This document shows, piece after piece, positions 25,704 to 31,730 of a stretch of DNA of 32,916 nt (position 1 is its first letter; every line of letters begins with the position of its first letter). Both the position numbers and the translations under genes were made by a program. Source of the stretch: Candidatus Poribacteria bacterium (lineage in GTDB: Bacteria > Poribacteria > WGA-4E > WGA-3G); assembly GCA_028820845.1 (NCBI GenBank), contig JAPPII010000075.1:1-32916 (forward strand), in the 5' to 3' direction. Under the pieces are notes generated by a model that made no database searches, was not told the origin of the DNA, and worked only from the letters and a program-made list of their open reading frames with translations.

Positions 25704-27131
25704 ATGTATGATTTGACAATCATCGGCGGTGGCAGCGCGGGTCTTGTGCTCGCGGTGGCGGGCGCAAAGTTAGGCAAAAAGACAGCACTTGTGGAAAAGC
25801 ATCGTATTGGCGGTGATTGCCTCTGGACGGGATGCGTGCCATCGAAAGCACTCCTGAAAGCGGCGAAGGTCGCGAATTACATACAGAACGCAGAGAAATA
25901 TGGCGTTGCAGCCACAGACGGTACACCTAACTGGCAGCGGGTGATGGAATACGTGCAAAGTACGCAACACACAATTGAAGAGGAACACGACAATCCTGAA
26001 CGGTTCCGCGAGATGGGAGTCGATGTTATCTTCGGAAGCGGACACTTTGAATCGTCCGATACTTTCGTCGTAGAAGATGTTGAGAATAACGAGACACGCA
26101 CCCTCAAAAGCAAAAAATTCGTGATTAGCACGGGGTCTCGCCCCCTTGCCCCTCCTATACCCGGATTGGAACTCTGTGATTATCTTGATAGCGAAACAGT
26201 TTGGGAATTAGAAGAGTTCCCTGAACGGCTGTTGGTTGTTGGTGCGGGTCCAATCGGTGTTGAGCTCGGACAGGCATTTCATCGTCTCGGTGCCGATGTG
26301 ACGATAGTCCAACGGAGTGAACGCATCTTGACGAAAGAAGATACCGATGTCTCTGAACAGATGCTCCACTACCTTCGCGCAGACGGTCTCACCCTCCGAC
26401 TCAACACGAATATAACAGCGGTCGCACAAAATGGAGAAGGCACAAAGGTGGTTCTCAGCAGTAGTGAAGGGGGTAGTACAGAACAGACGTTCGATAAAAT
26501 CCTAATCGCTGCAGGTCGCGCACCGAACGTTGAGGGTTTAGAACTCGATAAAATCGGAGTTCAGGTAGGTAGACGCGGAATCGAAGTGAACAACAAACTT
26601 CAGACGAGCGTCAAAAATATTTATGCTGCAGGTGATGTGATTGGACACTATCTGTTTACGCACGTCGCAGCGTTTCAAGCGCAGCTGCTCATCCGCAATA
26701 TCTTTTTCCCTTTCTCCAAAACGATTAACTACGGTGTCGTCCCGTGGACGACCTTCTGTGATCCAGAAGTCGCTCGATGCGGATTGACGGAGGTAGAGGC
26801 ACGCGAGAAACATGGTGATGTTGACGTGTTCACACTCGACCAAACGGATGTTGATAGAGCGGTTGCTGAAGGTGAGACGCAAGGTTTCACAAAAGTTATT
26901 GCGAGTCGGTGGAGTGGGAAAATATTAGGCGTTCACATTGTGGGAGCTAACGCGGGTGAAGTTATCCATGAATACGTCTTGGCGATGCAGACGGGAATTC
27001 CCTTGCGGAAATTGAGTGGTATGATCCACGTGTATCCGACTTTTTCGAGCAGTACGTGGCGCGTGGCAGGGAAATGGTTCTCAGAGGGAACGTTGATTCA
27101 GACTTTGCGGAAATTGGTTCGGTCAAGTTGA
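25704..27131 (+). CDS. FAD-dependent pyridine nucleotide-disulfide oxidoreductase (dihydrolipoyl dehydrogenase/mercuric reductase-like)
   Basis: A 475-residue protein from the ATG at 25704, 7 nt after GGAGAGG; earlier in-frame GTG/ATG codons crowd the RBS. The N-terminal FAD motif is LTIIGGGSAGLVLAVAGAKL. The redox cysteines are Cys39 and Cys44 in GGDCLWTGCVPSKALL. A second Rossmann fold (LLVVGAGPIGVELGQAFHRL) binds NAD(P)H. IYAAGDVIGHYLFTHVAAFQ precedes the dimerisation domain, which has a MIHVYPTFSSSTWRVAG region with the catalytic-type His. It has neither the heavy-metal-associated domain nor the C-terminal Cys pair of true MerA, so the substrate is uncertain. No lipoyl enzyme genes are nearby. 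Confidence 0.92.
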   Translation: MYDLTIIGGGSAGLVLAVAGAKLGKKTALVEKHRIGGDCLWTGCVPSKALLKAAKVANYIQNAEKYGVAATDGTPNWQRVMEYVQSTQHTIEEEHDNPERFREMGVDVIFGSGHFESSDTFVVEDVENNETRTLKSKKFVISTGSRPLAPPIPGLELCDYLDSETVWELEEFPERLLVVGAGPIGVELGQAFHRLGADVTIVQRSERILTKEDTDVSEQMLHYLRADGLTLRLNTNITAVAQNGEGTKVVLSSSEGGSTEQTFDKILIAAGRAPNVEGLELDKIGVQVGRRGIEVNNKLQTSVKNIYAAGDVIGHYLFTHVAAFQAQLLIRNIFFPFSKTINYGVVPWTTFCDPEVARCGLTEVEAREKHGDVDVFTLDQTDVDRAVAEGETQGFTKVIASRWSGKILGVHIVGANAGEVIHEYVLAMQTGIPLRKLSGMIHVYPTFSSSTWRVAGKWFSEGTLIQTLRKLVRSS

Positions 27132-27134
27132 CCT

Positions 27135-27389
27135 CTAATAGACGCTGCTACGATGTCCAATCCGGTGAACAATCACCACTTGCTCTCGCGTATCAAAGGA
27201 ATATACGATTCGATAGCTCCCTACTGGGACACTGAACTTTCCCCTATCTTTTCCTTTTAGTGCTTTGTGCCGGCCCATTGGACCAGTTTCGCATAACCTA
27301 TCCATTTTTTTGCGAACCCTCGGGACTATTGTAGCATCCAACTGAGCTAAGCCATCTTCAGCTTTTGGCATGATTCTTAATCGATACAT
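27135..27389 (-). CDS. RelE/ParE-family toxin-like protein
   Basis: An 84-residue basic protein from the ATG at 27387-27389; TTG at 27395 is an alternative. It has the RelE-type pattern: YRLRIMPKAEDGLAQLD, a helix with paired basic residues (RVRKKMDRL), a GSYRIVYSFD strand and an end HRIGHRSSVY with the conserved His/Arg and Tyr. Such toxins cleave mRNA in the ribosome or, as ParE, poison gyrase. It overlaps the end of the upstream gene by 13 nt, the usual antitoxin-toxin arrangement, and converges on the reductase gene with only a 3-bp gap. Confidence 0.85.
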   Translation of the reverse strand: MYRLRIMPKAEDGLAQLDATIVPRVRKKMDRLCETGPMGRHKALKGKDRGKFSVPVGSYRIVYSFDTREQVVIVHRIGHRSSVY

Positions 27390-28081
27390 TCCCAATCCAA
27401 CCCAAGTTTTTCCGCCACCTCTTCAATGGGAATCGCTTTAACTTTCCCAGACTCGTAATCCGCGATGCTCTGATCAATCTCTGCGGCAACTTCGGGCCGT
27501 AATTCCAATCCCTCGTCTGGATCATAATGATATGGGTCTAATACCAGTTCAAAAAGTTCGTAGGCGACGAACAACTCGCGAAACGATGCATCTAACTGTT
27601 GACGCGAAGGATTCTCCTGCAGCAACGCAACAACCTGTTCGCGGACACTAAAGAGTTCCTCTGCAACGAGAACACGGAGCAACGCTCGGAATTCCGCTGG
27701 TGGCAGCTCGGATACCTTTATCTCTGGTACCGACTCGCTTTCTAAGGGGATACCCATCCGTTTGTCCATTCGGTCATCAAGCGTTGTTTTCCGATTGGCG
27801 TGAATGTAGTCGAGGTGCCGCCTCAGTTTTTTCGCAAGCGCGGTGTGCGTATCTAAGCCCTGAAGCGGATTCTCTTCGTATTCCTCTAACCACAAGGCGA
27901 GAGATGTGTATTCGCAGAAAAATTCTCGGAATTCTGCTACCAATTCCGCCTCACTTTCTGCCGAAGGTGGCGCGTTGAGCAAACGCATGAGGCGTTTATG
28001 TGAATCAAAAAAGTCCTCATGGGTAACGCGTTGGAGCAGTTCATAGATGTCGTCACGGGACATATCGGCAAGTTTTTTCAT
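27377..28081 (-). CDS. Large duplicated-domain partner of the RelE-like toxin (probable antitoxin)
   Basis: The start is ATG at 28079-28081 with a GGCGGAG site; a longer frame to 28237 crosses the promoter and is rejected. The 234-residue, acidic, helix-rich protein has two similar units: residues about 14-90 (YELLQRVTHEDFFDSHKRLM, FREFFCEYTSLALWLEEYEENP) and about 133-204 (RALLRVLVAEELFSVREQVV, FRELFVAYELFELVLDPYHYDP). A short tail (SIADYESGKVKAIPIEEVAEKLG) resembles the C-terminal toxin-binding ends of RelB/Phd-type antitoxins. Typical antitoxins are 70-100 residues, so the duplicated N-terminal part is extra. I know no named family for it. Overlap with the toxin implies translational coupling. 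Confidence 0.75.
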   Translation of the reverse strand: MKKLADMSRDDIYELLQRVTHEDFFDSHKRLMRLLNAPPSAESEAELVAEFREFFCEYTSLALWLEEYEENPLQGLDTHTALAKKLRRHLDYIHANRKTTLDDRMDKRMGIPLESESVPEIKVSELPPAEFRALLRVLVAEELFSVREQVVALLQENPSRQQLDASFRELFVAYELFELVLDPYHYDPDEGLELRPEVAAEIDQSIADYESGKVKAIPIEEVAEKLGLDWECID

Positions 28082-28115
28082 CGGTTTCTCCGCCAGGATT
28101 TCAAATTTTAGGGCA

Positions 28116-28144
28116 ATTATCACATATTTTTGGGAGGGTGTCAA
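28116..28144 (-). promoter_or_regulatory. Promoter for the toxin/antitoxin-like pair
   Basis: On the minus strand TTGACA (28139-28144), a 17-nt spacer and GATAAT (28116-28121), about 40 nt upstream of the start. A 7-bp inverted repeat GTTTCGT/ACGAAAC (28147-28165) sits just upstream of the -35 and could be an operator; that is speculative. Confidence 0.7.
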
Positions 28145-28454
28145 CAGTTTCGTGACTAACGAAACCGTGTCGAGCTCGAATGAAAAAAATAGATTGGAGA
28201 AAAAGGAGCCGGAAACCACACTTCCAGTCGGTTCCAAGAGGTTCAGGGTCCTAACCTAACTCACGCATGCAACAGAGGCTTGCAAACTACACCTTTTAGG
28301 AAATATGGCTCCGGCTTACCCAAGGAGGCTTACATAGGGACGTGCAATTTTCGTGCCAATCAAAAAGGGGCTGTTTTGGGTGATTTATAAGGCGGAATTG
28401 CCTATTTTTTGAACAGACTCAAATAAAACTGATAAAAAAATAGACATTGGCATA

Positions 28455-28539: not shown

Positions 28540-29994
28540 TCAACCTTTTACAACACCGATAGGACGGAGGCGGGCGACGCGTCGGGAGAGTCCTGCCTTG
28601 TCAACGACGCGGACGACCTCATCAACATCTTTGTAGGCTTCGGGGACCTCTTCCTGGAGCGTGCGCCTGCCTTCCGCGCGCACATAGATGCCCTGCGCTT
28701 CCAAGTCTTTCTGGATAGAACGTCCCTTCGTCAAAGCAATTGCTTTCCGCCGTGAGAGCACTCTACCGGCACCGTGGCAGGTTGTACCCCATGTCTCTGC
28801 CATCGCTCCCGGATTCCCAACAAGCACGTAAGAGGCAGTCCCCATGTCGCCGGGAATTAAGACGGGTTGTCCGATTTTCTGGTATTTGTCAGGTATCTCT
28901 GGATGACCTGCTGGGAAGGCGCGGGTCGCACCTTTGCGATGGATAAACAACTCACGTTCTTTTCCATCTACGGTGTGTTTTTCAAACTTTCCGATGTTAT
29001 GTGCAACATCGTAGACGAGTTCCAAACCGAGTTCATCTTCTGTCGTTTCAAAAAACTGCATGAAGGTCTGACGAACGAGGTGCATGATACACTGCCGATT
29101 GTTCCACGCATAATTTGCACTACATGCCATTGCGGTAATGTAGTCCTGTCCTTCGGGTGAGTTAATCGGTGCAGAGGCGAGCTGCCGATCAGGGAGATTG
29201 ATGCCGTATCGTTCTGCAACTCTGACCCAACTCTTGACGTGTTCATCGCAAATCTGATAGCCAAAACCGCGTGAACCCGTGTGAATCATGACACAGATAT
29301 TGCCTTCGCGTAACCCCATAGCATCAGCGGCTTCTCGGTAAAAGACGCGGTCAACGGTTTGGACCTCAAGGAAATGGTTGCCAGATCCGAGGGTACCGAG
29401 TTGATTTTTGCCGCGTTCTAAGGCACGTTTGCTCGCAGCATCGGCGTTGGCGTGCTGGAGGAATCCGGTCGCTTCGGTAAAGTCAAGATCCCCGGGATGT
29501 CCGTATTCGCGCTCAATTGACCAGAGTGCCCCTTTTTCCAACATCTGACGTTCCTCTTGGACAGTCAAGCGAATTTTGCCTTTTGAACCGACACCACACG
29601 GAACGTTCTCAAACAACTTGGCGACGAGTGATTTCCGTTTTCCCTCAAGTTGCGAGACATCAAGGTTCGTACGGATGAGTCGGACACCACAATTGATGTC
29701 GTATCCGATGCCGCCGGGAGAGACGACACCATCTGCTTGGGGATCTGTCGCAGCGACACCACCGATAACAAACCCGTATCCCCAGTGTAAATCGGGCATT
29801 GCGAGGGAGTGCTTAACAATACCGGGAAGATGCGCAACGTTTGCGACCTGTTGCAGTGCTTCGTCACTTTTTGCCTGATCGAGAAGCTTTTCGTTGGCAT
29901 AGATGATGCCGTCAACACGCATCCCTTTCATGTAGCTTTTCGGGATACGCCAGCGATATTCGTCGATCTTTTGAAGTGTTATGTTTCCTGCCAT
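28540..29994 (-). CDS. rtcB: RNA-splicing ligase RtcB
   Basis: A 484-residue protein, close in length and motif positions to archaeal RtcB. RtcB joins RNA ends with 2',3'-cyclic phosphate or 3'-phosphate to 5'-OH ends, using GTP and Mn2+, in tRNA splicing or RNA repair. Metal ligands visible are Asp99 and Cys102 (GIGYDINCGVRLI), His207 (GSGNHFLE), His238 (MIHTGSRG) and His332 (DVAHNIGK). The guanylylated residue is His407 (GTTCHGAGRVLSRRKA). No archease or RtcA gene is nearby. Instead a membrane-protein gene ends 1 bp before this start codon. The RBS, GAGAG, is weak and lies inside that upstream gene, suggesting coupled translation. Confidence 0.96.
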   Translation of the reverse strand: MAGNITLQKIDEYRWRIPKSYMKGMRVDGIIYANEKLLDQAKSDEALQQVANVAHLPGIVKHSLAMPDLHWGYGFVIGGVAATDPQADGVVSPGGIGYDINCGVRLIRTNLDVSQLEGKRKSLVAKLFENVPCGVGSKGKIRLTVQEERQMLEKGALWSIEREYGHPGDLDFTEATGFLQHANADAASKRALERGKNQLGTLGSGNHFLEVQTVDRVFYREAADAMGLREGNICVMIHTGSRGFGYQICDEHVKSWVRVAERYGINLPDRQLASAPINSPEGQDYITAMACSANYAWNNRQCIMHLVRQTFMQFFETTEDELGLELVYDVAHNIGKFEKHTVDGKERELFIHRKGATRAFPAGHPEIPDKYQKIGQPVLIPGDMGTASYVLVGNPGAMAETWGTTCHGAGRVLSRRKAIALTKGRSIQKDLEAQGIYVRAEGRRTLQEEVPEAYKDVDEVVRVVDKAGLSRRVARLRPIGVVKG

Positions 29995-30653: not shown

Positions 30654-31730
30654 TTATGCATCTACCTGTTCTTGGAAGGCGTGAAAGGAGACTACGATAG
30701 ATGCCTCGATATTGAGTTGCTTGAGTCGGTTGAGGTCCGCAATAGCTTCAAGTGTAGGCGTGAGTGTCTGAACGTCAGCGTCAGGGAAGCGAGTGTTGAG
30801 GATAGCGAGGGTGCTTTCGATACTCGTCCGACGCGCCCCTTGTTCTATGCCTTGTTCTATACCGAGTTGATGTCCGCGTTGTTCGCTGAGTTCAATGATG
30901 GATGCTGCCATGTCTACGATCTCCTGATTCTGTGCATCCTCTCTTGTGAGGATACGAAGTAAGTCTTGATGTTCTGAGGCGTCTCTCCGGTGTAGGATCA
31001 GCAGGAAGATATACAAAATCGCACGCCTATACTGATCCGCATCGTCTGTGTGTAAATCCCTCAGCCCTTCTAAAGCCTCAAGGAGGGCTTGCCGCATCAC
31101 AGGGGCATCGGAGTCCTCATGCTGTAAGATGCTCAACAACCATCCCAAGGGATGACCGGCTGCCGTCAACGCGTCGGGGGCCGTGGCTTTGACATCGAGG
31201 AGCAAGGCATCGAAAGTCGGGACGAAACGGGTAAGGACTTCCGGGATGTCCAAGAGTGGGGTGAGAGACAACGGTGCCCGCCATTCTCCTTTACCGGTAT
31301 AAAAGACGATCGGCACGATAGGTGTCAGCTGCCACTCGCTCTGTGGACGTTTTTCTTCCTGCCACTGCCGGCGTTCCTCCATCCATATCTGAACCATGTA
31401 AGAGAGCAAGCGAAGTCCCATGGAGGGATCGACCGTGGATTGGTGTTCTATGAGCAGATAGACGATGACTTCCTGACGCGTCTGCGTTGGGGACCGAAAC
31501 GGCACTCTGAAGATCATATCGGATTCTTGGGGTCGGAGTTCATCGGAGATGAAACTTCGATTGAGTTGTTCGACGTGTGCGAAGTCAAGGGCATCGGCGA
31601 TCTGTCCTGCGACCATTCTCAGCACCGCTTCGAGATGTTCGCGCTGACGGATCAGCCATTTCGCGCTCCTATCGGGGAAGTGGTGGCTCGAAACATTCGA
31701 CAACTCCCGCAGTTCGCGTTCTATTACCAT
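30654..31730 (-). CDS. YhgA-like / Rpn family PD-(D/E)XK nuclease (transposase_31 type)
   Basis: A 358-residue protein. The N-terminal half (about 15-190) matches the YhgA-like/Rpn recombination-promoting nuclease family: Asp71 in ESDMIFRVPF, then VIVYLLIEHQSTVDPSMGLRLLSYMVQIW with Glu95 and Gln97 of the D-ExQ active site. A middle helical part follows, then a Gln/Glu-rich stretch (GHQLGIEQGIEQGARR) and a C-terminal helical region. Escherichia coli Rpn relatives are DNA endonucleases that raise RecA-independent recombination and have been tied to phage defence. The RBS GAGGAAA and a TTGACA promoter lie upstream. An IS3 remnant is adjacent. The protein appears complete. Confidence 0.88.
   Translation of the reverse strand: MVIERELRELSNVSSHHFPDRSAKWLIRQREHLEAVLRMVAGQIADALDFAHVEQLNRSFISDELRPQESDMIFRVPFRSPTQTRQEVIVYLLIEHQSTVDPSMGLRLLSYMVQIWMEERRQWQEEKRPQSEWQLTPIVPIVFYTGKGEWRAPLSLTPLLDIPEVLTRFVPTFDALLLDVKATAPDALTAAGHPLGWLLSILQHEDSDAPVMRQALLEALEGLRDLHTDDADQYRRAILYIFLLILHRRDASEHQDLLRILTREDAQNQEIVDMAASIIELSEQRGHQLGIEQGIEQGARRTSIESTLAILNTRFPDADVQTLTPTLEAIADLNRLKQLNIEASIVVSFHAFQEQVDA

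What the first reader, a model, noticed from the sequence alone, without database searches (positions are those of the whole stretch)
27135..28081. RelE-like toxin paired with an unusually large, internally duplicated partner
The 13-nt overlap and the toxin pattern give a typical antitoxin-toxin operon. The partner, however, is 234 residues with two similar helical units (about 14-90 and 133-204) before a RelB/Phd-like tail. The duplicated unit may be a new sensor or neutralising domain, making this the strongest candidate here for an undescribed toxin-antitoxin type.
Basis: partly seen in the sequence, partly recalled or inferred. Interest (0 to 1): 0.6.

Follow-up and report, generated by a model that had tools for sequence, protein, structure and literature searches.

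The report
Two-headed antitoxin paired with RelE toxin
In sponge-dwelling Poribacteria, a common growth-arresting RelE toxin is paired with an unusually large antitoxin that looks like a small ordinary antitoxin enlarged by two extra helices and then copied head-to-tail, with only the second copy keeping the toxin-blocking tail.

Summary
On the minus strand a 234-residue protein (27377-28081) overlaps an 84-residue RelE-superfamily protein (27135-27389) by 13 nt. The duplication is real and larger than described. Residues 2-113 align with 121-230 (profile-profile E 1e-24, 109 columns), so each unit holds a three-helix body plus an antitoxin-type arm. The second arm matches Pfam PF09720 (Unstab_antitox). 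The first arm has lost that consensus and carries a conserved basic RKT..R..RRMG motif. The family is confined, in what was searched, to one Poribacteria family (GTDB f1), with up to nine matches per genome. In 38 congeneric genomes, 76 of 79 clade toxins have this antitoxin directly upstream, and the other three toxins are truncated. About a quarter of antitoxins lack a toxin, several with toxin scars. A 74-residue antitoxin in a sister family, in one genome followed by RelE, aligns end-to-end to unit 2 with a ~40-residue insertion. This shows how the large form relates to a canonical RelB-like antitoxin. So this is a type II RelBE-like module with a rebuilt, duplicated antitoxin: a new variant of a known kind, not a new TA type. 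The body matches no known fold. No activity has been tested.

The parts
27135..27389 (-). toxin gene, RelE superfamily, 84 aa (ATG at 27389)
   Evidence: PF05016 38.5 bits; PHROG 1213 RelE-like 8e-13; a homologue's model matches RelE structures at Z 13.3; K51, R60, R80, Y84 conserved in 86 toxins
27377..28081 (-). antitoxin gene, 234 aa, duplicated (ATG at 28081)
27848..28081 (-). unit 1 body (residues 1-78): three helices
   Evidence: hhalign; AF2 model
27743..27847 (-). unit 1 arm (residues 79-113): aligns with the neutralising tail but carries basic RKT....R..RRMG instead
   Evidence: dN/dS 0.024 against L144
27512..27727 (-). unit 2 body (residues 119-190): three helices
27380..27511 (-). 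unit 2 arm and tail (residues 191-234): putative toxin-neutralising segment, PF09720
   Evidence: PF09720 at 193-222; distances track toxin distances best; dN/dS 0.039
27377..27389 (-). 13-nt overlap of antitoxin end and toxin start
28116..28144 (-). promoter-like site TTGACA-17-GATAAT, 11 of 12, extended -10 TG
   Evidence: 2.0 such sites expected in the region by chance, so only suggestive
28147..28165 (.). perfect 7-bp inverted repeat GTTTCGT-N5-ACGAAAC beside the -35: candidate operator
   Evidence: not shared by L144 and near chance level across the family
27131..28199 (.). approximate extent of the cassette: absent between the same two flanking genes in congener G073

Best explanation
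This is a chromosomal type II RelBE-like toxin-antitoxin module. The toxin is a RelE-family ribonuclease expected to cut mRNA or rRNA at the ribosome (inferred from fold and residues). The antitoxin is a RelB-type protein rebuilt in two steps. A two-helix hairpin was added to the N-terminal part of a short 74-residue-type antitoxin, and the enlarged ~110-residue unit was then duplicated in tandem (homology shown; order and direction of the steps inferred). The two bodies probably pack as an intramolecular pseudo-dimer, replacing the dimer that ordinary RelB makes from two chains. The second arm, which keeps the PF09720 consensus, wraps and blocks the toxin. The first arm has lost that consensus and probably became part of the folded core or a nucleic-acid contact (inferred). 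Predicted stoichiometry is therefore one toxin per antitoxin chain. Translational coupling through the overlap keeps the antitoxin made first.
For: Duplication including the arm. Repeated predicted helix order, with arm 1 at high confidence (block pLDDT 86-97) and arm 2 lower (77-87) in the toxin-free model. PF09720 tail on unit 2 (15 of 33 members). RelE fold and conserved catalytic-type residues (residue roles from PMC12620021). Pairing: 101 of 135 antitoxin frames have the toxin directly downstream, with junctions in mainly three fixed classes, -13, -1 and +2 nt. In 38 genomes 76 of 79 clade toxins have the antitoxin and the other three are N-terminally truncated. Orphan antitoxins carry toxin scars, e.g. 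L130 fused to the toxin end SRIRHRSSVYE. Arm-2 distances track toxin distances best (partial r 0.49 against 0.28-0.38). A 74-residue antitoxin aligns 74/74 columns to unit 2 with a ~40-residue insertion (E 7.5e-17), and its N-helix alone scores 17-18 bits against a maximum of 8.8 in 5000 shuffles. Purifying selection on both genes.
Against: No complex was modelled with readable contacts. The linked antitoxin-toxin model gives no coordinates or interface score here, and its single-residue linker biases the arm towards the toxin. Intramolecular pairing of the two bodies is inferred from the duplication and the single-chain model, not shown. TIGR02574, TIGR02385 and the other NCBIfam models stay below their cut-offs. 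About a quarter of copies persist without a toxin, so the antitoxin may have another role. Arm 1 is strongly constrained in the closest pair only (0.024; other pairs about 0.1-0.36).
Confidence: 0.72

Rival explanations
1. The duplicated body is a sensor: it keeps the antitoxin folded or stable until a trigger (phage protein, ligand, stress) binds it, then the antitoxin is unfolded or degraded and RelE is released.
For: The body matches no known antitoxin dimerisation or DNA-binding domain by sequence and has no clear fold match. It varies faster than the arms (dN/dS 0.20-0.25 against 0.02-0.04). Multi-copy expansion.
Against: No partner gene or trigger is conserved beside the pair. Several orphan copies suggest ordinary TA decay. 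Absence from defence-gene models is neutral.
Confidence: 0.15
2. Both arms bind toxin: the antitoxin is a true two-headed neutraliser holding two RelE molecules, arm 1 having diverged to bind a different or the same toxin.
For: Arm 1 aligns with arm 2 and keeps the same predicted helices. Arm 1 is strongly constrained between the window protein and L144.
Against: Arm 1 lacks the I-P-x-E-E-V-A-x-x-L-G-L consensus and is basic. It tracks toxin divergence less well than arm 2. It is predicted at higher confidence than arm 2 without toxin.
Confidence: 0.15
3. The large protein acts mainly as a stand-alone regulator or as an antidote that protects against related toxins elsewhere; the linked toxin is dispensable.
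For: About 25% of copies have no toxin, including two of six in the window genome.
Against: Toxin remnants at several orphan loci, near-fixed junctions in the rest, conserved catalytic-type residues and purifying selection on the toxin.
Confidence: 0.1

Closest known systems
RelBE modules: RelBE1 (9g12) and RelBE2 (3g5o) of Mycobacterium tuberculosis, E. coli RelBE (4fxe)
   Same: RelE fold (Z 11.9-13.3), conserved catalytic-type residues, antitoxin gene first, overlapping genes, C-terminal arm
   Different: E. coli RelB is 79 residues and dimerises through an N-terminal ribbon-helix-helix (PMC3507626); here the antitoxin is 234 residues, duplicated, almost all-helical, with no recognised DNA-binding domain
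PF09720 Unstab_antitox / TIGR02574 addiction module component
   Same: C-terminal 30 residues match the second half of the profile above Pfam's cut-off
   Different: Pfam profile is only 54 positions and its N-terminal half is not matched; TIGR02574 is below its cut-off
74-residue antitoxin of Poribacteria family f3 (L251, followed by RelE; also L141/L249, L250)
   Same: Aligns end to end with unit 2; in L251 directly followed by a RelE gene
   Different: One unit only, lacking the two extra helices; the other copies read (L249, L250) have no toxin next to them

Membership tests
RelE superfamily toxin | Sequence family PF05016 above curated cut-off | tested here: met
   38.5 bits against 23
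RelE superfamily toxin | RelE fold | tested here: met
   Homologous toxin in L206 model, Z 13.3 to 3g5o_B and 9g12_B
RelE superfamily toxin | Catalytic-type residues (E. coli K52, R61, R81, Y87) | tested here: met
   Equivalents K51 (76/86), R60 (86/86), R80 (84/86), Y84 (86/86); roles from PMC12620021
RelE superfamily toxin | NCBIfam TIGR02385 cut-off | tested here: not met
   21 bits against 27.9; this limits the name RelE/StbE subfamily, not the superfamily
RelE superfamily toxin | Ribosome-dependent RNA cleavage | not testable with these tools
   needs an assay
PF09720 Unstab_antitox | Curated score | tested here: met
   24.2 bits against 23.3, profile positions 25-54 only
TIGR02574 addiction module component | Curated score | tested here: not met
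   26.7 bits against 31.9
RelB antitoxin (classical) | N-terminal ribbon-helix-helix or other known DNA-binding dimerisation domain | tested here: inconclusive
   No sequence match in Pfam or NCBIfam; the model has helices only in the bodies apart from two-residue bridges; the fold search gave no clear match
Type II toxin-antitoxin operon | Adjacent, co-oriented, coupled genes conserved together | tested here: met
Type II toxin-antitoxin operon | Toxicity of one gene and rescue by the other through protein contact | not testable with these tools
   needs an assay

The most novel reading that the evidence does not exclude
A lineage-specific class of type II antitoxins in sponge-symbiont Poribacteria in which a tandem-duplicated helical body with a previously undescribed fold acts as a built-in trigger sensor, with one arm repurposed (basic RKT..RRMG) for operator or RNA binding while the other neutralises RelE.
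Probability: 0.15. Interest if true: 0.7.

Novelty: new variant of a known kind. Interest (0 to 1): 0.45.

Why it matters
Ordinary RelB-type antitoxins are small and work as dimers of separate chains. A family in which the antitoxin has been enlarged and duplicated inside one chain, with a likely single-unit relative still visible in a sister family, lets one ask directly what a dimeric antitoxin gains from becoming a single chain, and how one of two neutralising arms is freed for a new job. It also describes an abundant, apparently unreported TA family in uncultured sponge symbionts.

Tried and rejected
Relatives outside Poribacteria: none in viral contigs, plasmids or phages; all 80 genome-contig loci kept are Poribacteria (105 matched, 25 not seen). 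Known fold for the body: Foldseek best E 0.36, VIA best Z 5.2, in the range of chance for helical bundles, so neither a known nor a new fold is claimed. PDB sequence search with the family profile: nothing. Operator search: one perfect palindrome in the window, not shared by the nearest relative; family-wide 5 of 32 upstreams against 2.1 in controls (maximum 5), so inconclusive. Different toxins beside orphan copies: none recognised; orphans mostly end before unrelated genes. RtcB next to the module was considered as an RNA-repair partner and dropped: the RtcB flank is joined directly to the other flank in G073, which lacks the module. A second Poribacterial antitoxin family (L233 and others) shares only the arm, not the body, with this one.

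Full report
What is there. The window lies in a Candidatus Poribacteria genome: an almost identical record is VXZL01000191.1, and every one of the 80 related loci kept is Poribacteria. On the minus strand an ATG-started gene of 234 codons (27377-28081) is followed, with a 13-nt overlap, by an 84-codon gene (27135-27389). The ATG at 28081 is the likely start: the DNA is highly similar to the nearest relative, L144, from that codon onward and hardly similar before it. A good sigma-70-like promoter lies 35 bases upstream, though such sites are expected by chance.

The toxin. It matches PF05016 above its cut-off and the PHROG RelE-like family. A homologue modelled in an antitoxin-linked chain has the RelE fold, Z 13.3 to M. 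tuberculosis RelBE2 and RelE1. In 86 aligned toxins the positions equivalent to E. coli RelE K52, R61, R81 and Y87 are K51 (76), R60 (86), R80 (84) and Y84 (86). The roles of these residues are taken from PMC12620021. A ribonuclease acting on ribosome-bound RNA is therefore the expected activity, but it was not tested.

The duplication. A family alignment of 75 non-redundant antitoxins was cut in half and compared profile to profile: probability 99.6, E 1.1e-24, 109 columns, 23% identity, covering residues 2-113 against 121-230 of the window protein's numbering. Both halves of paralogues also hit each other directly. The predicted structure (mean pLDDT 89, pTM 0.79) shows the same order of helices twice. 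Each unit is a three-helix body followed by an arm of one long and one short helix. The second arm is the antitoxin-type tail (PF09720). The first arm has the same helices but a different sequence, with R97, R104 and R108 invariant in the 33-sequence alignment.

Where the unit comes from. In a sister family (f3) of the same order a 74-residue antitoxin is found in several genomes; in one of them (L251) it is directly followed by a RelE gene. Its profile aligns with unit 2 over 74 of 74 columns with one insertion of about 40 residues, E 7.5e-17; its N-terminal helix alone scores 17-18 bits, against a best of 8.8 in 5000 shuffled versions. So unit 2 equals a short RelB-like antitoxin with two extra helices, and unit 1 is a diverged second copy. 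Direction (growth in f1 rather than loss in f3) is inferred as the simpler reading and was not polarised with an outgroup.

Pairing. Of 135 antitoxin reading frames, including some fragments, 101 have a detectable toxin frame directly downstream on the same strand. Among 63 pairs read in detail the junction is mainly one of three types: 13-nt overlap, 1-nt overlap, or 2-nt gap. In 38 genomes of the genus, 79 toxins of this clade were found at E below 1e-11. Comparing them by hand with the antitoxin list, 76 have the antitoxin next to them; the three others were read and are N-terminally truncated. Conversely about a quarter of antitoxins lack a toxin, and several of these show scars: the antitoxin of L130 runs into the last residues of a toxin, and L087, L090, L091, L133, L048 and L028 keep toxin ends. 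This asymmetry, antitoxin surviving alone and toxin not, is what addiction predicts. The window genome itself has six copies: three intact pairs, one pair with a stop in the toxin, and two solitary antitoxins.

Which part binds the toxin. Across 73 non-redundant pairs, sequence distances of the second arm follow toxin distances best (r 0.65; partial 0.49 after the rest), ahead of the bodies and of the first arm (partials 0.28-0.38). This is correlation on related sequences, not proof. Between the window pair and L144, dN/dS is 0.02 for arm 1, 0.04 for arm 2, 0.20-0.25 for the bodies and 0.13 for the toxin. Arm 1 is thus constrained there although it no longer carries the neutralising consensus; in another subgroup it is not more constrained than the rest.

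Distribution and mobility. Matches occur in 55 of 85 Poribacterial genomes, nearly all in one family; a profile of the unit finds only that family, 47 of 83 genomes. None was found in viral contigs, plasmids or phages. In congener G073 the two genes that flank the module here, a pyridine-nucleotide-disulphide oxidoreductase and RtcB, are joined directly, without the 1.07 kb between 27131 and 28199. The module is therefore an accessory cassette gained or lost as one piece.

Mechanism proposed. The best-supported reading is a RelBE-like type II module whose antitoxin is an intramolecular pseudo-dimer with one working neutralising arm. Shown by sequence: duplication, arm homology, pairing, toxin family, link to a short antitoxin. 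Inferred: toxicity, neutralisation by arm 2, packing of the two bodies as a pseudo-dimer, the 1:1 stoichiometry, and the role of arm 1. The body matches no solved structure clearly, so a sensor or regulatory function for it cannot be ruled out.

Literature. Searches of the open library for Poribacteria with toxin-antitoxin, for duplicated or pseudo-dimeric antitoxins, and for PF09720/TIGR02574 listed no paper whose title or abstract points to such a protein. Most of these papers were not read in full, and the library lacks most subscription journals.

Noticed in passing
L233 749-1323; L240-L244: A second Poribacterial antitoxin family (107-162 aa, motif YAExLVYDAYSRYDP, tail VIPMEEVAEELGIKW) with a RelE toxin; in several loci a third small gene downstream repeats the antitoxin's helical unit. 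It shares the arm but not detectably the body with the window antitoxin.
   Followed up: partly
L097 776-1942, L102, L110, L116, L132: Five antitoxins carry a shared N-terminal domain of about 165 residues; the same domain begins a separate 330-aa gene just upstream of the solitary antitoxin in L006 (weak MIT_C hit at its C-terminus). It looks like a gene fusion with an unknown partner.
   Followed up: partly
L036 (1507-3335), L020 (118-2394): Two copies of the module stand in tandem in genomes G028 and G027.
   Followed up: no
L231 77-903: Another large (about 200 aa), apparently unrelated protein with an antitoxin-like tail (IEAGEEIPWEDVKQEFDIRLS) upstream of a RelE-like gene.
   Followed up: no
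window 28540-29994: RtcB RNA ligase gene directly upstream of the module, same strand; in G073 it lies next to the oxidoreductase without the module, so probably a chance neighbour.
   Followed up: partly
window 30654-31730: YhgA-like PF04754 protein (Transposase_31 family) close to the module.
   Followed up: no
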